DNA from: Rivularia sp. T60_A2020_040
GTDB taxonomy: Bacteria; Cyanobacteriota; Cyanobacteriia; Cyanobacteriales; Nostocaceae
NCBI GenBank assembly: GCA_015272215.1
Contig: JACYMD010000119.1
Location: forward strand, 1 to 34,918
Reading direction: 5' to 3'
DNA length: 34,918 nucleotides
Shown here: positions 1 through 10,907 of the stretch, piece after piece
How positions within the stretch are numbered: position 1 is the first letter of the stretch
Layout: every line of letters starts with the position of its first letter
Notes under the pieces: model-generated
Database searches by the model: none
What the model was told of the DNA's origin: nothing
Seen by the model: the letters and a program-made list of their open reading frames with translations, nothing else
Position numbers and translations under genes: made by a program

Positions 1-633
1 GATAACTACATTTCAATAGCATATTATCATGTCATTTTTCTTGCGTTTGCCCTGGGTGAATATCAAGCTTATAAATCTGTAATAACATGGGATTTAATTA
101 CTGAAAATTATCGTCTTTATCGCTTTCTTACTCAACTAGAAGATATTCTGTTCAAAGAATCAAATGAAAGCGTTTATCTAGCAGAAATTAGGCAACTAGT
201 AAGACGATTGCTGGTTAATTCTTATTGGATAAAAACTCAACATCCGGAACCTGATTATAAGACTGGAACTTCTGTTAAACTTTTATATGATGAGTTGGGT
301 TTTCCTTTTACAATTCAAACTGTAACCTTTACACCAGGAACACAATCCAACATTCACAATCATGGTATTTGGGGAATCGTCGCAGTATTAAAAGGAAACG
401 AAAAAAATACGATTTGGAAGCGAATTCCTACCACAGAATATCCAAATAAAATTGAATCTTCAGGAGAAATTATTTTAAATCCTGGCGATATTATTAGTTT
501 CGCTCCCGGTGCAATTCATAGTGTAGAAGCAATCAGTGAGGAACCAACTGTAACTTTTAATTTATACGGTGAAACTAAATCAAAAGACCGTTTTGCATTT
601 GATATTGTTCATCATACTGCGAAGAATTTTTAA
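1..633 (+). CDS. Cupin-fold metal-dependent protein (cysteine dioxygenase-like), 5' end not resolved
   Basis: The last 142 codons, from a TTG at 208, encode a double-stranded beta-helix (cupin) protein. A His-Asn-His-Gly motif is encoded at 355-366, followed by a Gly-rich turn and a later Pro-Gly-Ala-Ile-His motif, the usual metal-binding pattern of cysteine-dioxygenase-like cupins. The same frame stays open back to base 1 with no stop and no ATG, GTG or TTG before 208. The stretch from about 88 (Trp-Asp-Leu-Ile-Thr-Glu) looks like the normal N-terminal part of this family, so the TTG at 208 is probably not the true start and the gene probably begins outside the window. Substrate unknown. The next gene on the same strand, past a small repeat element, is nitrogenase-associated. 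Confident in the fold, not in the start or function. Confidence 0.65.
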   Translation, partial: DNYISIAYYHVIFLAFALGEYQAYKSVITWDLITENYRLYRFLTQLEDILFKESNESVYLAEIRQLVRRLLVNSYWIKTQHPEPDYKTGTSVKLLYDELGFPFTIQTVTFTPGTQSNIHNHGIWGIVAVLKGNEKNTIWKRIPTTEYPNKIESSGEIILNPGDIISFAPGAIHSVEAISEEPTVTFNLYGETKSKDRFAFDIVHHTAKNF

Positions 634-652
634 GGTAAAAAGTCAAAGGTTA

Positions 653-822
653 AGAGGATGTTTTCAAAGTCTAATTTAATACTTTATCTGGCGACTATAA
701 GTCGCGGCTACACAAACCGGCACCCGCCGTGGCAGCGGGTTTTAAATCAACTAGTCCACGCAGGTGGACTTTGTTTGTGTAGTAGCGGTAAAAAAGCGCC
801 GGATACTTTTAAAACATCCTCT
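653..822. mobile_element. MITE-like element with 18-bp terminal inverted repeats
   Basis: Terminal inverted repeats at 653-670 (agaggatgttttcaaagt) and 805-822 match at 17 of 18 positions. If the outermost base pair is left out, the element is flanked on both sides by TAA, which fits a 3-bp target duplication. It carries no credible gene. The interior is a palindromic unit of its own, with gtcgcggctacacaaac on the left and gtttgtgtagtagcggt on the right, enclosing two smaller hairpins (cccgccgtggcagcggg and gtccacgcaggtggac). It is too short to encode a transposase, so any movement would need a related insertion sequence elsewhere. Confidence 0.6.
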
Positions 823-897
823 AAAGGTCAAAGGTTGTAAAAAGTAAACTCATAACAACTGTCCACCATCAACTGTCAACTAAACTTGGAGATTTTT

Positions 898-1338
898 ATG
901 GTAAAGGTAATTTTTTACGAAAAAACTGGCTGTCGAAATAATACTAAACAAAAAACTCTGTTAACGGCAGCGGGGCATCAAGTTGAAGCGCATAATATCT
1001 TAGAAGAAAAATGGACTAAAGAGCGTTTGCTTTGGTTTTTTAAAAATCGTCCGGTAGCGGAATGGTTTAACCCTTCTGCACCTAAAATTAAATCTGGTGA
1101 GATAAATCCGGAACAATTAGACGCGGAAACTGCGATTAATTTAATGTTAGAAGAACCGTTGTTTATTCGTCGTCCTTTAATTCAAGTTGGTTATCGTGGG
1201 GAAGTTGGTTTCGATACTCAAGTTATTGATAATTGGATTGGTTTAACACCTAAAGATGAGACTTTACAAGAAGTCAGTCAAAAGTTGATGAGTCAGGATT
1301 TACAAGGTTGTCCTAATAATCATCAGCATCATCATTGA
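898..1338 (+). CDS. Nitrogenase-associated protein (ArsC/Spx-like)
   Basis: A 146-residue thioredoxin-fold protein of the ArsC/Spx group that matches the nitrogenase-associated subfamily. What shows this: an N-terminal beta strand ending in Thr-Gly-Cys-Arg-Asn-Asn-Thr-Lys with Cys12 at the position of the ArsC catalytic cysteine, a Pro-Val-Ala-Glu-Trp-Phe segment, and a later Pro-Leu-Phe-Ile-Arg-Arg-Pro-Leu motif. I chose the ATG at 898 because GGAG at 888-891 sits correctly before it; a TTG at 886 overlaps that ribosome binding site. The C-terminus ends in Cys-Pro-Asn-Asn-His-Gln-His-His-His, a possible metal-binding tail. Members of this family occur with nif genes, but the exact role is not settled. 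It implies a diazotroph. Followed by a good terminator. Confidence 0.82.
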   Translation: MVKVIFYEKTGCRNNTKQKTLLTAAGHQVEAHNILEEKWTKERLLWFFKNRPVAEWFNPSAPKIKSGEINPEQLDAETAINLMLEEPLFIRRPLIQVGYRGEVGFDTQVIDNWIGLTPKDETLQEVSQKLMSQDLQGCPNNHQHHH

Positions 1339-1423: not shown

Positions 1424-2140
1424 CAATATTTAACTTTCTTAGAGTCCTATTTATAGGACTTTCGCTATGAGACGGGGATTTGCAATCCCCGGCGAATCTT
1501 TAAAAAGATGCGGAATATCATCTAATCAAAACGTTAATGTTGATTTACGACGCTTTAACAACAAATATAATTAGTGCGTCTAACCCAACCTACAAGAGGA
1601 CTTTTTATAACTAATTCTTATAAATAAATTTTTGCCAATTTGGCAGTTAATTTTGTCTAAATAATGATAGCATTTGCGCTTTAGTACTTCTTATTACAGC
1701 CAATTCTACTAAGCCTATAATGTCAAATTTATTTTATTTTTATTTTACATTTATGTTATTTTTATTTTTCTACAGCTTCTACTGTGTATCAAAATATATT
1801 GTGGGGTACAGTACCCGTTCAAATCGCAGCTAAAAGGATTAAACTAATTAATGAATAAATCTTGACTGGAAAATAAATATATATTGTTAAAATCGAACAA
1901 CAACTTAAAGAGTGATGATTTGAGTACCAAATAATGGTATTAATCTATTTGAAACGTTAATTTATTTTTTAAATTATTAAAAGTTTAACTATTCTGGTAA
2001 ATAATGCCAAAATCCCTGGTAATCTGTCAAAATTATCAATTTTAACCAAGTAAATCACCGGCTAATTTACCGGCATTATTCCATCACAGCCATCTACCAA
2101 AAATCTGGTAAAAAATAATCTCTGCGGGTTGAAAATAAGT
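1424..2140. other. Gene-free AT-rich gap with several small hairpins
   Basis: No credible reading frame on either strand. It holds four short palindromes: agtcctat/ataggact at 1443-1460, ggggatttgcaatcccc at 1474-1490 (a form common in Nostocales intergenic DNA), tgccaatttggca at 1633-1645, and gggtac/gtaccc at 1804-1816. The last 200 bp are very AT-rich and must hold the promoter of the GTPase gene, but I could not pick a convincing -35/-10 pair. Confidence 0.5.
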
Positions 2141-4702
2141 ATGAAAAGTGACATAGCAGTAGAAAAATTACGCAGCTATAAGGAGTATGCAGAATCCGTA
2201 CTTCAAAGTCTAGAGTTGGTTTCGGAGAATCCACCACCTCAAGAAGATTGGGTACCCTCTAGTATTCATGATAACATTCAGCGGCTGGTACAGTCCGCTC
2301 GTTCGACGGTGGAATTGGCTGCTTCTCCGGTAAAAATTGGGGTGATGGGGGAGTTTAGTAGTGGGAAAACTCTGTTAATTGGTAGTTTAATTGGTTTTGC
2401 GGATGCTTTACCAGTTAGCGAAACTCCTTCTACGGGTAATGTGACTGCAATTCATTTGGTGCAGCAACCGGAATTACAGACGACGAAGGTGAGTAAGTTT
2501 ACGGTGGAGTACCTTTCCCATGAAGGGGTAAAGGAATGTTTGGGTTTTATGCTCAAGGTGGTGGAAGGTAGAGCAAAGTCAGTGGAAGTTCCTGCCGCTC
2601 CTTTAGCGACTTTGAGAAGTTTGTATCCTACCACTTTTGTTGATAGTAACGGGATTTTAACTTGGTGTGAGCAAGCTTGGAATCAAAGCCAAAGTTTGGA
2701 ATTGCGCTCGCTATTACGGGAAGTTGTGGTATTTGTCCGTACTTATGCTGCTTATGGGAAAGATATCTGCGGTAAAAGTTACGAAATTGACCATTTAACA
2801 GCAAATAAGGGGTTGAGGTTATCTGAACCTCCAATGAATATTTTGGAGTTGAAGTTTCGGGAATTACCGCAATCTCCGAAGCGTTGGGAAACTTTTGCTC
2901 AGCCTTCTGCGAGGGATTTACACAATAGTTTCTCGTTGATTCGACGGATAGATATTACGGTTGAGGTAGCAAAACAGATATGGGATTTATCGGGGTTACA
3001 GGGGACTAATGAGTTTGTATTGTTGGATTTTCCCGGTTTGGGTGCGGCTGATTCGGGTATCAGGGATACTTTTTTATCGCTGCGGGAATTGACGGAAGTA
3101 CAGACGATTTTATTGCTGCTCAATGGTAGATATCCTGGGGGAGCTACTGCGGCAAAAATTCGCAGTATGTTGGAACGAGATAAGGGACAAGATTTAAGGG
3201 ATCGGATTATTGTTGGTGTCGGAAGGTTTAATCAACTGCCTTTGACGAGTCGCGATATTATCGCCATGGATGAGGTTTTGGAAGAACCTTTATTGTCGCA
3301 AGAAGCGGTTTTAGAAAAGTTGAGAATTTTACATCTGACTCTTGCTAGTGCAAGTAATTTGACTACTGAGAAGAAAAATATCGTTTTATTGTCGCAGCTT
3401 TACGGATTGACAAAACAAGCGGAATATTCTTCATTGATACAAGTTTGTTCCCCGGAGTTTTTACCGGATTTAGAAAAGCCCTTAACAGTTGATGAAGTGG
3501 AGTTACGGGAGAAGTGGGGACGTTTGGGGGAAATGTTACCGACTTCGAGTCCTTTACACAAGCAATTAAGCGATTATGCTGAAGATGGGGGAATCAATAG
3601 ATTGCGATCGCTATTGAAAGAACATTTAGGACAACATGGGATGAAGCAGTTGGTGGAAGATACTCAAAGAGCTGCGGAGACTGTGTTGAAGGAGCAAAAT
3701 AATTTAAAGGCTGTGTTGGAAGAGATTCCCGCTTATATTCCGGTGGTGGAAAATCCGGCTTTTTTGGAGTTACGGGAAAAAATTGAGAATTTGGTGACGA
3801 CATATCGGCATTTTCAGGAAGATTTAGAAAAACAGCCGATGTTAAAAAATCGGACTGGGTTAACTTTGAGTGATGTTGTTAAGGATGAGTTAACTAATAA
3901 GATATTTTTTGAGTGGAGTGAATGGACTTTATTATTTGATCGGACTAAAAATGGTACTATTAGTTTTACTAAGAGTGAAAGTATCTTTGAGGAGGATGAA
4001 GAAGAAGATGCAATTCCTACTCAAAGTGATGATTTCTATAATTCTTTTGTCAAAACTATCAATGAAATGCAGTCTTTTGCTCATGAACGAACTGCGGAAA
4101 CGGTGAAGGATTTATTTAATAAGTTATCTGTGGAAGTACAGTTAGAACGGAATAAGATTAAAGAAATTGTTCAACCTCAAATGGAACAGCGAATTCAGGA
4201 GAAGTTTACTAAAAAAGAAACTCGTTTATTTCGATATTTATTAAGGGCTATTGATCCGACTAATAAATGGCAAAATTTAATTATTCAGCATAGTGGTTTG
4301 GCTAGTAGTGTAGCACCAATTAATGCCGATAATTTGTTTCCTTTAGCTAGGAAGGATGCACAACATCAAAAAGGACAAATATTCGATTGGAGTCCTAATA
4401 AGCAATTTCCTGCACCCCCAAGACCATTTAATCATCAAATCGCCGTTTTGCGTTTGCGTGATGAAATTACTGCAAGTGCAGGGTTACATTTAATTCAATA
4501 CGTTAGCGAATTGACGAAGCAAGTTAAAGGTTCTTTTTCAATGGCTTTGAAGGAGATTATTGATAGTTTACAAGAACTTTTAAAATCTAAACACGAACCT
4601 TTATTAAGATATATTGCTTCGGCGGAAGAAACAACTTCTGCATCAACTCCCGCTTGGTTGGATACGATGAAGAGAATTACTGTTATTTCTTATCCGGAGT
4701 AA
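2141..4702 (+). CDS. Large dynamin-like GTPase
   Basis: An 853-residue protein with an N-terminal GTPase domain and a long helical C-terminal half, the layout of bacterial dynamin-like proteins that bind and remodel membranes. Seen in the sequence: P-loop Gly-Glu-Phe-Ser-Ser-Gly-Lys-Thr at residues 70-77, a conserved Pro-Ser-Thr-Gly-Asn-Val-Thr switch-I region at about 96-102, and a G3 motif Asp-Phe-Pro-Gly-Leu-Gly at 296-301. The G1-G3 gap is unusually long (about 220 residues). The expected G4 motif (N/T-K-x-D) is not clear: the strand Ile-Ile-Val-Gly-Val-Gly is followed by Arg-Phe-Asn-Gln. An acidic patch (EEDEEED) lies near residue 617. I prefer the ATG at 2141 to an in-frame TTG at 2129. 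It lies 137 bp before a SrfB-like gene, an arrangement resembling the enterobacterial srfB/srfC pair. Cellular role unknown. Confidence 0.75.
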   Translation: MKSDIAVEKLRSYKEYAESVLQSLELVSENPPPQEDWVPSSIHDNIQRLVQSARSTVELAASPVKIGVMGEFSSGKTLLIGSLIGFADALPVSETPSTGNVTAIHLVQQPELQTTKVSKFTVEYLSHEGVKECLGFMLKVVEGRAKSVEVPAAPLATLRSLYPTTFVDSNGILTWCEQAWNQSQSLELRSLLREVVVFVRTYAAYGKDICGKSYEIDHLTANKGLRLSEPPMNILELKFRELPQSPKRWETFAQPSARDLHNSFSLIRRIDITVEVAKQIWDLSGLQGTNEFVLLDFPGLGAADSGIRDTFLSLRELTEVQTILLLLNGRYPGGATAAKIRSMLERDKGQDLRDRIIVGVGRFNQLPLTSRDIIAMDEVLEEPLLSQEAVLEKLRILHLTLASASNLTTEKKNIVLLSQLYGLTKQAEYSSLIQVCSPEFLPDLEKPLTVDEVELREKWGRLGEMLPTSSPLHKQLSDYAEDGGINRLRSLLKEHLGQHGMKQLVEDTQRAAETVLKEQNNLKAVLEEIPAYIPVVENPAFLELREKIENLVTTYRHFQEDLEKQPMLKNRTGLTLSDVVKDELTNKIFFEWSEWTLLFDRTKNGTISFTKSESIFEEDEEEDAIPTQSDDFYNSFVKTINEMQSFAHERTAETVKDLFNKLSVEVQLERNKIKEIVQPQMEQRIQEKFTKKETRLFRYLLRAIDPTNKWQNLIIQHSGLASSVAPINADNLFPLARKDAQHQKGQIFDWSPNKQFPAPPRPFNHQIAVLRLRDEITASAGLHLIQYVSELTKQVKGSFSMALKEIIDSLQELLKSKHEPLLRYIASAEETTSASTPAWLDTMKRITVISYPE

Positions 4703-4766
4703 TCAATCAATAAATAATAAACAATAATAATTAGTAATTAATAGGTTGGAAATCATAAATACTGAT

Positions 4767-4787
4767 AGACGTAGCAGTGCTACGTCT
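4767..4787. repeat. 21-bp palindrome, dispersed repeat family
   Basis: Ten-base arms (agacgtagca / tgctacgtct) around one central base. Near-identical copies occur at 10987-11007 and 11036-11056, and a diverged longer form at 15750 and 21456. It lies between the GTPase and SrfB-like genes and could form an RNA hairpin in a joint transcript. Confidence 0.7.
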
Positions 4788-4803
4788 CTACCCGTAAACT
4801 TTA

Positions 4804-4838
4804 ATCCAAAATCCAAAATCTCAAATCCAAAATTTCCA
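4804..4838. repeat. Heptanucleotide STRR (aatccaa)
   Basis: Tandem and near-tandem copies of aatccaaa run right up to the start codon of the SrfB-like gene, so no Shine-Dalgarno sequence is visible for that gene. The same family occurs at 15683-15716 and 28799-28908. Confidence 0.6.
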
Positions 4839-4839
4839 A

Positions 4840-7800
4840 ATGCCTGTAAAAATTGAACTTTTTAGTCGTTATCAATTACGTATTAAAGAAACAGATTCTT
4901 CACTTTTATTATTGCCTGTTATTGAAATAAAACCGGCTGATAGCCCTAATTTTCCATTTATTTCTTCCATTGAAATTACCCTTTTAGGAGAACCTGAAGA
5001 GTTAGGAAAAGCAATCGAATCGGCTTATAAAAGTGTCAGTTTTAGTACTAATAGATTACTGAAATTAAATTCACCACAGCGGTTGAGACAAAGTGATTGT
5101 ATCTGGGATGAATCTTTACCACAAGGAATTAATTTGACTTTGCGGGTAACTGTGGAATATTTCGATTCTGATGACACTGATAAAGCTATTTTATCTGTTA
5201 AGAAAACCGCTACGGCTGATTGTAGTATTTGGACTTTTGCTGTGGAAAATGCTCGTTTGAGAAATTTGTCAGCTTCGGAAGAACAGGGCGATCGCCATCA
5301 AGATATAATAAGCGAAACTCCTATTCTTAATCATTCTTCATCAGTTGTTTCACCAAAATCTGATATAACTTATCCTGGTTGGTTTGCAATTGATTTCGGT
5401 ACTTCTAATTCGACTGTGACCCTTTATGACCCCAAGGTAATTGTTACTCCCCATACTTTACCCAGTGAACAAGAGGAAAGGTTAAGCGAAAAATTAGCGT
5501 TTTGGTTGACAGAACGTCCAGTGGATGAAATACCAGGTATCAGTCGTGATGTTTGGGAAGGTGAGTGGCAAAAGTTATTCTCTCATCTCAGTAAAAACTT
5601 GGAGGATTTTAATCCGGCGAATTTACAGCTTTTACGGGGTGAACCGCTTTTAGAAGCAATTAAGGAAATAGAAATCTGTCTGAGCAAGCGTTTGGGATGG
5701 TTCCGTCGGGCTGCGAGTAAAAGATTAAATCAAATTTATCATCAAGTTTTTCGAGTTCCGGCTTTGGAATGGCAAAGTTTGTTACCAGTAGAATTGGATA
5801 AAGATCGACGGTTAAATGAAATTCCTTCGGAGTTGGAGGTAACTAATTTAGAACCTTCTTTACCAACTCAAGACCCAGGAAAGGTTAAAGTAATGTTAGG
5901 AGAACAAGCATATCAGCATAGATTAGATGCTATCAAAAAAGGGGAAAGTATTGATGGTCGTTTTTTGCATTCTCCCAAACGTTATTTTGGTCAAGAACGC
6001 AGTTTTGATATAAGTTTGGATGGTAAGGAAGATACTATTCCTGTTAATCAGCTTTTACAGGCTGCTTACGCTCAGTTGATTGAGTTAACCCAAAAATATC
6101 GTCAGCGTTATCCGGGTAAATGTAGCGATGGTGAATTTTATCGGGCTGTTTTGACATATCCGACAATTGCTTCTCCATTTATCCGTCGGGAAATCGAAAG
6201 TTTAGTTAAGAAGTTGGGTATTGAAGATGTACAAATGGCTTACGATGAAGCAGTATCAGCAGCTATTTTCTTTTTATGGCAAGAATTTGGTGGAGATTTA
6301 AATTTAGGGATAGAATCCTTTAAAAGCCGCTGTCGTCGGGATGGTCATAAATGGTGGCAAAATGTTTTAGTGTTGGATATTGGTGGTGGAACTACCGATT
6401 TAGCTTTAATTAGATTGACATTAGAAGAAATTGACCCCTTTGAACCTACTGAAGATAAAGGTGACGGTGGTCGTTATTATAAACTTACACCAAAACTGTT
6501 GGGTTCCTCTGGTCATTTACAATTGGGTGGGGAACTGATTTCGTTACGCTTATTTTTGCTTTTGAAAGTTGCGATCGCAGATTCTCTCTTAAGTGCAGTT
6601 GCGGATGATATTATACCAAAAGAGGTCTTGAAAGTCCAGCCAGAAGAGTTAAATGAGCGGTTTTTAAGTAACGGTAAATATCGTCAAGGTTCGCTTTTAG
6701 CTTGTGTCGATCAAGAAATTCGTGAAGGTGATACCTATAAGGAAGCTTTAAACGACGCTGAAAAAATCTTACCTACCCGATGGAAGAATCGTTCATCCCG
6801 TTCTCAAACATTTTACGACCTCTGGGAACACGCGGAAAACGCTAAACTTGCTTTAGGACAAAAAGGTTCTCTAGTAGATGCATCAGAAGCAATATTTGTT
6901 TTAGATGGAACACAAATAGCGGAATTACTTGCTCAAAATGATATTCAATTACCTACAGATGTAGTTGATAAAATTAGCGTCACCTTAACAGGAGAACAAT
7001 TTGATAAAGCCGCATCTCCGGTAATTCAAGAAGCAATTGGTATCGCGTCTGGATTAATTGAAAATGCTTTTAAATCTAAGTTTATTAGTGATATAAATTT
7101 AGTTAGAACAGATGAAGAGCAAGTAAAGAAAGAACAAGTAGACTGGTTAATTTTATCGGGTAAAACTTGTAATTTAGAACTTGTAGAACGGGAACTTTAT
7201 CGAGTATTTAGTAAATCCGATTACTTTGTCTGGAATGAAGAAAGAGTCACTTTTGAACCAGAATACACCAAATTAGCTACATCTGCCGGTGCTTGTTTTG
7301 CTGAAAAACTCCGTCAATTAAGCTTTTCTCCCCAAGAGTCAAAAGACTTGCTCAGAAAAGGAGCAAATCAACTTTATATAGATGTCAAAAATTTATTTTA
7401 CTTCCTACCTTGCTCCTTCGTTAGAGAAGTTATTGGAGGAAGTCCCGTTCCGATTTTTCACGCTGGGCAAGAACTTTATCAACTCAAAGCTGAAGAAGGA
7501 ATGGCTAAATTACGCAGCGATTGGTTGGGGATGCAGTTAACTAATAATATCAGACGACAAGACTTTGAAAAAATGAAGTTACAGTTATGGGGAAGTTATA
7601 ACGGTGATGCCTTAATGAAAAAATTAGGAATCACCGAAGACGACTTTAAAAATAATATCAAAGTTCAATTTGAAATCAATCAAAAATTGGATATTGATTT
7701 ACTACTTTGTCGAGGGATTCCCCATTATTTAATACCCATAAATATCCCCAGTATAGACGCAGCCAAAGCCATTGGAAACCAAGAATTAATTACCGATGAA

Positions 7801-8274
7801 TCTCAAGTAATATGTGATATTGCAGTTAACGTAGTCGAAGCCGCAAACGCATTAAAAACAGATGCACATACAGTATTATTTAAAGCCGGTAAAGATTACA
7901 GTAAAGAATTAAGAGTCTTCCGCTACGAAAACGACACAAATCAACCGCAAACTATCGGTTTAATAGCTGAGCTTCCAGCATTTCCAGCCAGTGGAAAACA
8001 CACATTTTACTTTCAATTTCGCAACCCCCAATCCAACAAATGGGAGTTAATTGGAGAGCTACCACAACCACCAGTTAATAGCGAATATCCTTGTCGTTAT
8101 TACGTCACCTTAGATTTTAAAGGAATATTACGAGTACATCCCTTTGAAGTACCTTATTGGATATCTAATAATCCCGAATTTCTCAAACAAGAAGGATGTA
8201 TTTTTAGAGATACATTACAACCACAATCTACCAATGTAGAAGCCGAACGTGACCCTTTTTGTGGTATACATTAA
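4840..8274 (+). CDS. SrfB-like giant protein with Hsp70/actin-type ATPase core
   Basis: A 1144-residue protein. Residues 1-140 form a beta-rich domain, followed by a linker. An actin/Hsp70-type ATPase then begins with a phosphate-1 loop Asp-Phe-Gly-Thr-Ser-Asn-Ser-Thr at 185-192. The phosphate-2 loop Leu-Asp-Ile-Gly-Gly-Gly-Thr-Thr-Asp is at 512-520, and an adenosine-type motif Leu-Ile-Leu-Ser-Gly-Lys at about 770-775. The roughly 320 residues between phosphate-1 and phosphate-2 are longer than in DnaK and contain an extra helical region. The C-terminal 250 residues look beta-rich and resemble no Hsp70 substrate domain that I recognise. Length and motif order fit the SrfB family (named after a Salmonella SsrB-regulated gene; biochemical role unknown). 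Its partner is very likely the dynamin-like GTPase upstream. Annotation as DnaK would be misleading. Confidence 0.7.
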   Translation: MPVKIELFSRYQLRIKETDSSLLLLPVIEIKPADSPNFPFISSIEITLLGEPEELGKAIESAYKSVSFSTNRLLKLNSPQRLRQSDCIWDESLPQGINLTLRVTVEYFDSDDTDKAILSVKKTATADCSIWTFAVENARLRNLSASEEQGDRHQDIISETPILNHSSSVVSPKSDITYPGWFAIDFGTSNSTVTLYDPKVIVTPHTLPSEQEERLSEKLAFWLTERPVDEIPGISRDVWEGEWQKLFSHLSKNLEDFNPANLQLLRGEPLLEAIKEIEICLSKRLGWFRRAASKRLNQIYHQVFRVPALEWQSLLPVELDKDRRLNEIPSELEVTNLEPSLPTQDPGKVKVMLGEQAYQHRLDAIKKGESIDGRFLHSPKRYFGQERSFDISLDGKEDTIPVNQLLQAAYAQLIELTQKYRQRYPGKCSDGEFYRAVLTYPTIASPFIRREIESLVKKLGIEDVQMAYDEAVSAAIFFLWQEFGGDLNLGIESFKSRCRRDGHKWWQNVLVLDIGGGTTDLALIRLTLEEIDPFEPTEDKGDGGRYYKLTPKLLGSSGHLQLGGELISLRLFLLLKVAIADSLLSAVADDIIPKEVLKVQPEELNERFLSNGKYRQGSLLACVDQEIREGDTYKEALNDAEKILPTRWKNRSSRSQTFYDLWEHAENAKLALGQKGSLVDASEAIFVLDGTQIAELLAQNDIQLPTDVVDKISVTLTGEQFDKAASPVIQEAIGIASGLIENAFKSKFISDINLVRTDEEQVKKEQVDWLILSGKTCNLELVERELYRVFSKSDYFVWNEERVTFEPEYTKLATSAGACFAEKLRQLSFSPQESKDLLRKGANQLYIDVKNLFYFLPCSFVREVIGGSPVPIFHAGQELYQLKAEEGMAKLRSDWLGMQLTNNIRRQDFEKMKLQLWGSYNGDALMKKLGITEDDFKNNIKVQFEINQKLDIDLLLCRGIPHYLIPINIPSIDAAKAIGNQELITDESQVICDIAVNVVEAANALKTDAHTVLFKAGKDYSKELRVFRYENDTNQPQTIGLIAELPAFPASGKHTFYFQFRNPQSNKWELIGELPQPPVNSEYPCRYYVTLDFKGILRVHPFEVPYWISNNPEFLKQEGCIFRDTLQPQSTNVEAERDPFCGIH

Positions 8275-8667: not shown

Positions 8668-9681
8668 ATGAAAAATCTTCTTCCAACCCTACTGAAAATC
8701 GGTGGAATTACTTTCTCAGTAGTAATCTTCACAATAATTATCTTCTATTTATGGGCAAGCTCTAATAGTTATCCCCGGAATAAATATGCGGAAATTATAG
8801 ATTACCCAGCTTCACCACCGACTAATAAAGACGAATTTACGGTTATTACTTATAATATCGGTTATCTTTCTGGATTAACTAATAATCAAGCCGTTGATAG
8901 GGAGAAAAAGCTATTTGATGATAATCTTAAAACTGTTGTTGATGCCCTTAAGCCATTCAATGCTGATTTTATCGGTTTGCAAGAAATTGATTTAGAATCT
9001 AAACGTTCATTTAACATCAATCAAGTTGCTGAATTAGCAGAGCAACTTTCATTTAACCAAGCAGGAATAGCAATTAATTGGGATAAAAATTACGTACCAT
9101 TTCCCTACCTGCCATTTTCCGCTCACTTTGGTAAAATTTTATCAGGACAAGCTATATTAAGTCGTTATCCTATCACCAATAACAAACGTATTGTATTAGA
9201 TAAAGTTGCTAGTAAACCTTTTTTCTACAACGCTCTTTATTTAGATAGAGTCGCACAAGTCAGCGAAATTAAAGTTAATAATCGTTCCATTATTATCATC
9301 AACGTACATTTAGAAGCCTTTGATATACCCACTCGTCGTAAACAAACCGAATATATCCAAAAACTGCTCTCGGAATATGTTGATAAATATCCGGTATTGC
9401 TAATCGGTGATTTTAATAGTACAGTTCCTCCCATACCCGAAAATCCCCAACCAACTGTTGATATTTTATTAAAAACTGCGGCAATTAAATCCGCTTTGCC
9501 ACCCGAAGCTTTAAATAATCCCCAAATTGCAACTTTTCCTTCAGATAAACCCATTGTAAAATTCGATTACGTCTTCTATACTCCTAAAAATATAGAATTA
9601 ATAGAATGGCGAATTGTTGATCAAGTTAAACAAGCTTCTGATCATTTACCCGTAATGATGAAGTTTCGATTTAAGGATTAG
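8668..9681 (+). CDS. Membrane-anchored endonuclease/exonuclease/phosphatase (EEP) family protein
   Basis: A 337-residue protein with an N-terminal hydrophobic segment at about 10-30 (signal anchor) and a complete EEP metallo-phosphodiesterase domain outside it. The catalytic set is readable: Asn63 (Thr-Tyr-Asn-Ile), Glu106 (Leu-Gln-Glu-Ile-Asp), His214 (Asn-Val-His-Leu-Glu), Asp248 and Asn250 (Gly-Asp-Phe-Asn-Ser), Asp300, and Asp325-His326 (Ser-Asp-His-Leu-Pro). The family includes DNase I-like nucleases, sphingomyelinases and inositol phosphatases, and the sequence alone does not say which. Membrane anchoring makes a phospholipid or extracytoplasmic substrate plausible. It lies on the same strand, 393 bp after the SrfB-like gene, but with repeats between, so membership in that operon is open. 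Confidence 0.8.
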   Translation: MKNLLPTLLKIGGITFSVVIFTIIIFYLWASSNSYPRNKYAEIIDYPASPPTNKDEFTVITYNIGYLSGLTNNQAVDREKKLFDDNLKTVVDALKPFNADFIGLQEIDLESKRSFNINQVAELAEQLSFNQAGIAINWDKNYVPFPYLPFSAHFGKILSGQAILSRYPITNNKRIVLDKVASKPFFYNALYLDRVAQVSEIKVNNRSIIIINVHLEAFDIPTRRKQTEYIQKLLSEYVDKYPVLLIGDFNSTVPPIPENPQPTVDILLKTAAIKSALPPEALNNPQIATFPSDKPIVKFDYVFYTPKNIELIEWRIVDQVKQASDHLPVMMKFRFKD

Positions 9682-9770: not shown

Positions 9771-10907
9771 ATGCCCAACCTAAACAAATTATTAAATACT
9801 CAAAACTCAAAGTTAGCTTGGTTACTGCGGTTAAAACTGTTAGGGCTGCGAACCGAGTTAGAAGAAGCTTTGAAAACAGAAGTTTCTGACCCCGGAAGCG
9901 ATGCTTGTCGAGAACTTTTACAAGAATTAAATGTAATTTTAGAAGCTGAATATCAAAGTAATAATACTGAAGAAATTCCTTCTTGGGAAGATGTCTTAGA
10001 ACCAATTTCAAATCAACTTGAGAATAAACCACTACCCCAAAGCCAATTAAAACCAGTTACTCAAAACTTACTTGCTCACAAAGAATTATCGGCATACGTC
10101 GGTGAATATCAGTTTTACAGTCAAGATGATGCTCAATTATGGAACGAAATACAAAGATTATTATTAAGGGTACCTGAAAAACAAGCTGATATATTGCGAT
10201 CGCAAATTCTCAAACAAGTAAATATATTGGGTGCAACAGAAGATAAAGTTTCTTTACGACAACTTGCATTTCCCATCCACGAACATATTTACTCTGGTTT
10301 GAAAGGTAATATCCAAGCTTCGGGGTTGTGCTTTTCCAATATGGTTAATTTCGACGAACGATTAGACATTCAAAGAAGCGGTAGTGAACTCGATATCCTG
10401 GCTGCAATTGTTTCTACTTGTCTCAAATTTATCGAAATTGATCCGCATTTACATCATGCTTTAAGAAGTGTCGATAGATTCGGCGTTCGTTCCTTAAATT
10501 CAGTAGATAAACCTAAGTACATCACCGCATTAATCGAACGTTTTCACAGAGTAAAAGTAACTTTTAACACCGATAAATCCATCGCCCTGCGTGCAAGATT
10601 AGACTTAGATGAAGCCATACATTCATTAATTTATTTACCATGTGTTGACCGCTTTTCCTGGTGGGGAAAACTCCAACAAGAAGCCCGTCACACCTTAGAA
10701 GTAGCAGTACAGCAAGCGCGTCAAGCGGGATATCAAGTTCAGATTCGTCCTTTATGGGGAACTTACGCTGATGTTTACCCCTTCTCCAAAGACGATTTAC
10801 AAGTAGATATCGGTGGTATACCCGGAGAAGTTTCCGCTTGTCTGCGAGTTTATGCCAAAATCAACGATGAAACCCTTCCGGGAAGGGTGCTATTTCGTTC
10901 GTCTTGA
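9771..10907 (+). CDS. Unrecognised protein, possible fourth member of the GTPase/SrfB-like cluster
   Basis: 378 residues with no family I can name. The N-terminal 90 residues are charged and mostly helical with Leu-rich segments. The middle has an Arg-Ser-Gly-Ser-Glu-Leu-Asp-Ile-Leu helix and a His-Leu-His-His motif. The C-terminal third contains many aromatics (Arg-Phe-Ser-Trp-Trp-Gly-Lys) and ends in a predicted beta region (Tyr-Ala-Asp-Val-Tyr-Pro-Phe, Asp-Ile-Gly-Gly-Ile-Pro-Gly-Glu-Val). No signal peptide or membrane span. The last codons cross a palindrome at 10872-10888 (acccttcc-g-ggaagggt), so the extreme C-terminus may have been changed by a repeat. Being on the same strand after the SrfB-like and EEP genes is the only hint of role. 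Confidence 0.65.
   Translation: MPNLNKLLNTQNSKLAWLLRLKLLGLRTELEEALKTEVSDPGSDACRELLQELNVILEAEYQSNNTEEIPSWEDVLEPISNQLENKPLPQSQLKPVTQNLLAHKELSAYVGEYQFYSQDDAQLWNEIQRLLLRVPEKQADILRSQILKQVNILGATEDKVSLRQLAFPIHEHIYSGLKGNIQASGLCFSNMVNFDERLDIQRSGSELDILAAIVSTCLKFIEIDPHLHHALRSVDRFGVRSLNSVDKPKYITALIERFHRVKVTFNTDKSIALRARLDLDEAIHSLIYLPCVDRFSWWGKLQQEARHTLEVAVQQARQAGYQVQIRPLWGTYADVYPFSKDDLQVDIGGIPGEVSACLRVYAKINDETLPGRVLFRSS

What the first reader, a model, noticed from the sequence alone, without database searches (positions are those of the whole stretch)
2141..8274. Dynamin-like GTPase paired with a SrfB-like Hsp70/actin ATPase in a cyanobacterium
A membrane-remodelling-type GTPase and a 1144-residue actin/Hsp70-fold ATPase are encoded back to back with a 137-bp gap. 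Enterobacterial srfB and srfC, poorly characterised genes, appear to have the same combination (SrfB-like ATPase plus a P-loop protein). If the pairing is conserved, the two nucleotide switches may work as one machine, such as membrane surveillance, envelope stress response or defence. The motifs are seen directly; the link to srfBC is from family knowledge; the joint function is inference.
Basis: partly seen in the sequence, partly recalled or inferred. Interest (0 to 1): 0.75.

Follow-up and report, generated by a model that had tools for sequence, protein, structure and literature searches.

The report
Three-gene dynamin–ATPase unit in filamentous cyanobacteria
Beside a dynamin-like GTPase and an Hsp70/actin-like ATPase lies a third, uncharacterised partner gene; nearly all sampled genomes of this cyanobacterial family keep the unit and the few exceptions lack all three genes, so they probably work as one machine, perhaps one that shapes membranes.

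Summary
In detail: a dynamin-like GTPase (2141-4702) and a 1144-residue Hsp70/actin-fold ATPase (4840-8274), same strand, 137 bp apart. In 97 locus sequences picked by their ATPase, the GTPase occurs in 94 and X378 in 87, always co-directional; the next neighbour family occurs in 21. The GTPase is in 187 of 192 sampled genomes of the window's family, which includes Anabaena and Calothrix; the ATPase is in 18 of 317 others of the order. The five family genomes without the GTPase also lack X378 and the ATPase. The GTPase model matches solved dynamins, SynDLP best. In the window the ATPase resembles SrfB over about 70 residues, below Pfam's cut-off; the GTPase does not match SrfC. The srfABC link is unproven. 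A 2018 review (PMC5827413) describes cyanobacterial dynamins with a DnaK-domain gene downstream, so the pairing is probably known; ten paper searches showed nothing on the trio or its joint loss. Function is unknown; a membrane-remodelling machine with two nucleotide switches is most likely.

The parts
2141..4702 (+). dynamin-like GTPase (853 aa from the ATG; frame open from a TTG at 2129)
   Evidence: G1 and G3 invariant in 45 of 45; model; best PDB matches SynDLP, BDLP, MxB, dynamin
4840..8274 (+). Hsp70/actin-fold ATPase, distant SrfB relative, 1144 aa
   Evidence: phosphate-1 and phosphate-2 motifs invariant in 48 of 48
9771..10907 (+). X378, third conserved member, 378 aa, no known family; C-terminal ~50 residues conserved but mostly not folded in the model
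8668..9681 (+). Exo_endo_phos-family gene between ATPase and X378 in the window's close relatives only; probably not part of the unit
   Evidence: (found in L060, L061, L062 of 80 loci, within the flanks held)
1850..2140 (+). upstream leader/promoter region, well conserved among near relatives
   Evidence: alignment with L059, L060, L062, L090; NtcA and HetR-type patterns not clearly enriched over 68 upstream regions

Best explanation
A three-protein machine. The dynamin-like GTPase assembles on a membrane and remodels, tethers or mends it. The Hsp70/actin-fold ATPase, active by its motifs, acts as the second switch that loads, assembles or disassembles the GTPase. X378 is a small adaptor whose conserved tail folds only on a partner. 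Shown here: the three genes form one conserved, co-directional unit in most loci; they are present or absent together in the genomes tested for all three; the GTPase has a dynamin fold and G1/G3 motifs; the ATPase has intact nucleotide-binding motifs. Inferred: physical complex, order of action, membrane as target. The most likely setting is upkeep of the membranes or septa of filament-forming cyanobacteria, because the unit is nearly universal in the heterocyst-forming family and the named carriers outside it are filamentous genera (morphology from recall).
For: Tight spacing: 2-3 bp between GTPase and ATPase in 6 of 77 named loci; 20 bp and 10 bp between the three genes in the divergent L178. 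Prevalence: GTPase in 187 of 192 family genomes, 53 of 56 genera (E<=1e-30). Joint absence: the 5 genomes without it lack X378 and ATPase. Partner kept when unlinked: X378 is intact elsewhere in G174 and G051. Joint decay: in G332 all three are in pieces although X378 lies 3.4 Mb away. Second copies L128 and L131 lie next to each other in all three trees. Dynamin fold: 55 PDB matches at E<=0.001, the 50 listed all dynamin superfamily, best SynDLP 7.4e-13. X378 tail: 10-residue block means of pLDDT 29-49 from 331 on, against many invariant residues there.
Against: No interaction, membrane binding or phenotype is shown. G4 is GRF[N/D], not [N/T]KxD, so guanine specificity is doubtful. X378 is not within about 8 kb downstream in 3 of 80 named loci and is unlinked in G174 and G051. 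GTPase and X378 have no transmembrane-like stretch (highest 19-residue hydropathy 1.18 and 1.36); the ATPase reaches 1.92 at 566-584, a charged stretch that I take for a buried helix. The septal or filament setting rests on distribution and recalled morphology; no heterocyst regulatory signal was found. Tree agreement is also expected from shared descent. The ATPase was not modelled, so an Hsp70 substrate-binding domain cannot be excluded. Frame breaks of X378 in G332 could be sequencing errors.
Confidence: 0.5

Rival explanations
1. Chaperone pair: the ATPase is a true Hsp70-type chaperone with a substrate-binding part that folds or recycles the dynamin or sorts proteins during membrane remodelling, as a 2018 review suggested for cyanobacterial dynamins with a DnaK-domain gene downstream.
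For: HSP70 matches 16 of 20 ATPase members at E<=1 (best 0.0011); 1 of 4 divergent members passes the HSP70 cut-off (L182, 26.4 bits against 20.6); PMC5827413 section 7.
Against: The best HSP70 stretches that I could see (3 proteins) end at profile position 359 of 599 at most, in the nucleotide-binding half. No fourth gene of any kind is a conserved neighbour, so no co-chaperone gene travels with the unit. The window's own ATPase has no HSP70 match at E<=1.
Confidence: 0.25
2. Member of a wider srfABC-like group: the trio is the cyanobacterial branch of the three-gene srfABC operon, whose products form a complex. This can be true together with the best explanation.
For: Same number of components and similar sizes: srfA, srfB, srfC of 1395, 3021 and 2682 bp and mutual co-immunoprecipitation (PMC6950479 passages), against 378, 1144 and 853 aa here. 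SrfB is the best Pfam family of the window's ATPase and matches at E<=0.001 in all 28 genomes that carry the ATPase.
Against: The SrfB match covers about 70 of 992 positions in the window and 5 of 28 genomes pass the cut-off. The SrfC model matches no GTPase member at E<=1. X378 matches no family convincingly. Size agreement alone is weak.
Confidence: 0.3
3. Conflict or defence system: a GTPase/Hsp70 device that senses phage or damage and acts on the membrane, like LeoABC or the GTPase-centred systems of Kaur et al. 2020.
For: PADLOC LeoA matches 41 of 45 GTPases at E<=0.1 (best 2.2e-7); multicellular prokaryotes are rich in NTP-dependent conflict systems (PMC7159879 passages).
Against: The LeoA match in the window is 0.0023 and covers residues 55-105 round the P-loop; LeoBC matches 1 of 45 at 0.06. 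No other conserved neighbour (neighbours were not named one by one). No close relative in the plasmid collection, and no ATPase relative in phages or viral contigs. Near-universal presence in the family is unlike patchy defence genes.
Confidence: 0.1
4. Mere neighbours: unrelated nucleotide-binding proteins that happen to be adjacent in this lineage.
For: Gaps of 100-900 bp in many loci, and X378 unlinked in a few genomes.
Against: Adjacency in nine families of the order, joint absence and joint decay.
Confidence: 0.03

Closest known systems
Cyanobacterial 'chaperone clade' of dynamin-like proteins (Jilly et al. 2018, PMC5827413, section 7 read whole)
   Same: Dynamin-like GTPase with a DnaK-domain gene downstream in cyanobacteria; probably this pair.
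   Different: Section 7 mentions no third gene, no SrfB likeness and no distribution. Its gene list is in a supplement I could not open, so identity is inferred.
SynDLP and NosDLP/BDLP (solved cyanobacterial dynamin-like proteins)
   Same: G domain plus long helical stalk; SynDLP is the best PDB match (7.4e-13); profile match to proteins that I take for SynDLP-like over the G domain (303 columns, probability 57%).
   Different: Separate family: BLASTP similarity to 12 genomes' strongest dynamins is mostly limited to the P-loop region; it lacks the L/INALL/I extension of the P-loop described in PMC5827413; G4 is GRF[N/D].
srfABC operon (SrfB PF07520, SrfC PF10139)
   Same: Three genes, large middle partner with weak SrfB similarity.
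   Different: SrfB match local and mostly below cut-off; no SrfC match; SrfA not comparable here.
LeoABC
   Same: Bacterial dynamin GTPase (4aur is among the fold matches, 6.6e-5).
   Different: No convincing LeoB/LeoC counterpart; different partner proteins.

Membership tests
Dynamin superfamily (PF00350) | G1 GxxxxGK[S/T] and G3 DxPG | tested here: met
   45 of 45 aligned GTPases
Dynamin superfamily (PF00350) | G4 [N/T]KxD (recalled) | tested here: not met
   GRFN in 23, GRFD in 22 of 45
Dynamin superfamily (PF00350) | Pfam gathering score | tested here: met
   Window 27.0 bits against 27, just met; 19 of 19 members match at E<=1, best 5.3e-9; divergent L180 43.4 bits passes, L178 22.0 bits fails
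Dynamin superfamily (PF00350) | G domain with long helical stalk | tested here: met
   Model pLDDT 83.6, pTM 0.59; best matches SynDLP, BDLP, MxB, dynamin, IniA, mitofusin; TM-scores low, about 0.2-0.5
Dynamin superfamily (PF00350) | Membrane binding and GTP hydrolysis | not testable with these tools
   Needs purified protein
SrfB (PF07520) | Pfam gathering score and match over most of the profile | tested here: not met
   Window 24.1 bits against 27.1, residues 461-529 to profile 511-582 of 992; 5 of 28 genomes over the cut-off, stretches of at most about 120 positions listed
SrfC / Virul_Fac (PF10139) | Profile match of the GTPase | tested here: not met
   0 of 19 members at E<=1; 0 of 244 genomes, controls also 0
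srfABC operon | SrfA counterpart | not testable with these tools
   No SrfA model or sequence at hand; X378 has no credible Pfam or NCBIfam match
HSP70 (PF00012) | Nucleotide-binding domain motifs | tested here: met
   DFGTSN and DxGGGTTD in 48 of 48; motif names recalled
HSP70 (PF00012) | Pfam cut-off and substrate-binding domain | tested here: inconclusive
   1 of 4 divergent members passes (L182); window has none at E<=1; no best stretch beyond profile position 359 seen; structure not predicted
Jilly 2018 chaperone clade | Locus tags in its supplement | not testable with these tools
LeoABC / GTPase-centred conflict systems | LeoB/LeoC, tubulin, EAD or effector partners travelling with the GTPase | tested here: not met
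   No conserved neighbour beyond the three genes; LeoBC 1 of 45 at 0.06

The most novel reading that the evidence does not exclude
The trio and srfABC are two branches of one old three-part bacterial membrane machine (dynamin GTPase, Hsp70/actin-fold ATPase, adaptor), and in cyanobacteria it became a fixed part of filament-forming life. srfABC would then be a housekeeping machine first and a virulence factor only by context.
Probability: 0.25. Interest if true: 0.85.

Novelty: new variant of a known kind. Interest (0 to 1): 0.6.

Why it matters
A gene trio kept by 187 of 192 sampled genomes (counted by its GTPase) of a model group for bacterial multicellularity, with two nucleotide switches and a partner of unknown fold, has no function that I could find. 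It can be deleted and tagged directly in Anabaena, so the question of what bacterial dynamins do in filaments becomes testable. If the link to srfABC held, it would also recast a poorly understood operon.

Tried and rejected
Heterocyst regulation: NtcA-type sites upstream of the GTPase occur in 3 of 68 regions against 8.2 in shuffled sequence, HetR-type TCCGGA in 5 against 2.6; no case for nitrogen control. Single-base shuffles were used, a rough control.

Mobile or viral origin: tblastn against plasmids with the window's ATPase, GTPase, X378 and a divergent ATPase gave only faint Hsp70 and dynamin hits or nothing; the window's ATPase has no match in phages; the ATPase profile found no relative in viral contigs (41 pattern matches, none confirmed). 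GTPase and X378 were not searched in phages or viral contigs.

Known fold for X378: 0 of 145 PDB matches reach E<=0.001.

Canonical dnaK beside a dynamin in 12 genomes, compared by eye: only G039 and G099 (dnaK about 2.7 kb upstream of a SynDLP-like gene) and G091 (Hsp70-like gene about 6 kb away). The dynamin list was cut short, so this is a partial check.

Literature: ten searches showed no paper that treats SrfB together with a dynamin or with heterocysts. PMC5827413: section 7 whole plus passages. PMC6950479, PMC7159879, PMC8195603, PMC9950537, PMC10104851, PMC10653889: passages only. All others: listing only.

Outside cyanobacteria the spread is not known: the one genome-contig scan used peptide patterns specific to this family (80 of 174 confirmed relatives kept).
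Full report
What is there. The window carries, on the + strand, a GTPase frame (open from 2129, likely start ATG 2141, end 4702) and a 1144-residue ATPase (4840-8274), 137 bp apart. The GTPase scores 27.0 bits with Dynamin_N (cut-off 27) and the ATPase 24.1 bits with SrfB (cut-off 27.1), the latter over residues 461-529 only. Neither matches a PDB sequence by phmmer at E<=1.

Third member. In 27 other genomes of the same family the GTPase and ATPase are next to each other and co-directional in 27 of 27, and a protein of 355-380 residues follows on the same strand in 25 of 27. In the window it is the 378-aa frame at 9771-10907 (X378), with an Exo_endo_phos gene (8668-9681) between. That gene was found in this place only in L060, L061 and L062 among 80 named loci, within the flanks held. 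Clustering the frames of 97 locus sequences (80 named, 16 unnamed from outside the family, the window; all picked by their ATPase) gave ATPase in 97, GTPase in 94 and X378 in 87, every copy co-directional; the next family occurs in 21 loci with 8 of 25 copies co-directional (these other neighbours were not named one by one). In the 80 named loci the GTPase was found in 77; in the other three the contig begins about 130 bp before the ATPase. X378 was found in 74; three of the six misses are near contig ends (L059, L074, L094), three (L063, L088, L090) have about 8 kb downstream without it. A few GTPase copies are broken or split (L067, L102, L118, L130).

Spacing. GTPase-ATPase gaps run from 2 bp (2-3 bp in six Calothrix-type loci) to several hundred bp; ATPase-X378 gaps from 5 bp to several kb. 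In the divergent L178 the gaps are 20 and 10 bp. This suits an ancestral operon that loosened in some lines (inference).

Distribution. In 386 genomes of the phylum the ATPase profile matches 42, all in the window's family. In 192 genomes of that family the GTPase profile matches 187, in 53 of 56 genera (E<=1e-30). In 388 genomes of the order the ATPase matches 88: 70 of 71 in the family and 18 of 317 outside it, in eight further families (71 and 317 are counted from the printed rows, which list unmatched family members first). Contig lengths shared between searches identify family members as Calothrix, Anabaena, Dolichospermum and Desmonostoc, that is the heterocyst-forming clade; this reading of the family is from recall. 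Named carriers outside it are Okeania, Hormoscilla and Oscillatoria, filamentous by recall. Other carriers outside the family have no names here, so their form is unknown.

Joint gain and loss. The five family genomes without the GTPase (G395, G400, G401, G411, G440) also lack X378 and the ATPase. X378 is intact but elsewhere in G174 and G051, whose GTPase and ATPase stay together. In G332 the GTPase and ATPase are remnants, the ATPase without its middle, and X378, 3.4 Mb away, is in three frame pieces; sequencing error could explain the X378 breaks but not the missing ATPase middle. L195 and L196 are also broken. Of the 19 loci fetched, 15 carry sequence of all three genes without being counted as decayed (L189 has X378 cut by the contig end, L179 has the ATPase in two frames), L188 lacks X378 at a contig end, and three are decayed. 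Distances in the three gene trees correlate at 0.96-0.98 over 65 loci plus the window; shared descent alone would also do this. The second copies L128 and L131 lie next to each other in all three trees, and the first copies L082 and L084 do likewise elsewhere.

GTPase. G1 and G3 are invariant in 45 of 45, but G4 is GRF followed by N (23) or D (22). The model has pLDDT 83.6 with helices of 26-53 residues after the G domain. Foldseek gives 55 PDB matches at E<=0.001; the 50 listed are dynamin superfamily, led by SynDLP (7.4e-13), BDLP (1.9e-8), MxB and dynamin-1, with LeoA at 6.6e-5. TM-scores are low (about 0.2-0.5), so domain arrangement is uncertain. Against other cyanobacterial dynamin-like proteins the significant BLAST similarity is limited to the P-loop region. 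Profile comparison with a group that I take for SynDLP-like spans the G domain (303 columns, probability 57%, E 1.1e-4); with a NosDLP-like group it is weak (7.4%); with a tandem-partner group it is 86.5% but over 46 columns only.

ATPase. Phosphate-1 and phosphate-2 motifs are invariant in 48 of 48, so it should bind and split ATP. SrfB matches 20 of 20 members (best 4e-6), HSP70 16 of 20 (best 0.0011) and MreB 18 of 20 (best 0.063). In a genome search SrfB finds this protein in 28 of 244 genomes, 5 over the cut-off. Of four divergent members, two favour HSP70 (L182: 2.5e-6 against 0.0015; L183: 1.7e-4 against 9.4e-4) and two favour SrfB (L178, L180). The protein is thus its own branch of the Hsp70/actin superfamily, with SrfB the nearest named family for most members seen. 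An N-terminal part of about 130-170 residues is absent, or present only upstream behind stop codons, in a subgroup, so it seems dispensable.

X378. No credible Pfam or NCBIfam family, no significant fold match in the PDB. The model is mostly helical with a small sheet (pLDDT 77); from residue 331 on, a stretch rich in invariant positions, block means are 29-49. Conserved yet unfolded alone suggests a partner-binding tail (inference).

Prior knowledge. PMC5827413 (section 7) sorts 121 cyanobacterial dynamins and names a chaperone clade with a DnaK-domain gene downstream. I think this is the same pair, because the GTPase just passes the Dynamin_N threshold and the ATPase family shows faint HSP70 similarity; the supplement could not be read. 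SrfABC proteins bind one another (PMC6950479 passages). GTPase-centred conflict systems with HSP70 exist (PMC7159879 passages), but with tubulin or other partners; here no fourth gene is conserved.

Judgement. The trio as a functional unit is well supported by comparative data. Its action on membranes is likely from the GTPase's kind, not shown. The srfABC link is an open lead. The pairing itself is probably known; the third gene, the near-universal presence in one multicellular clade and the joint loss are, as far as my ten paper searches go, not described.

Noticed in passing
window 208-1338: A cupin-like gene and a nitrogenase-associated gene (TIGR01616, 8.4e-47) lie upstream on the same strand; each occurs in 11 of 97 loci, in Calothrix/Rivularia-type relatives.
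   Followed up: partly
window 2141-4702, residues 362-364 of the GTPase (from the ATG): The G4 motif is GRF[N/D]; 23 of 45 aligned proteins, the window's included, have Asn in place of the base-reading Asp, so nucleotide preference may have shifted.
   Followed up: partly
L052-L058 (ATPase) and matches: In a subgroup the ATPase frame lacks its N-terminal ~170 residues; in several of these genomes the profile match continues upstream through stop codons, as if that domain were decaying.
   Followed up: partly
L080/L130, L082/L131, L084/L128: Three Calothrix-type genomes hold two cassettes from different subgroups; in L130 the GTPase frame is broken.
   Followed up: partly
window 1850-2140: About 290 bp upstream of the GTPase is well conserved among near relatives, perhaps a promoter or leader.
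   Followed up: no
L178, L180, L182, L183 (ATPase): Divergent cassettes outside the family blur the line between SrfB and HSP70 profiles and may be the best material for linking the two families.
   Followed up: no
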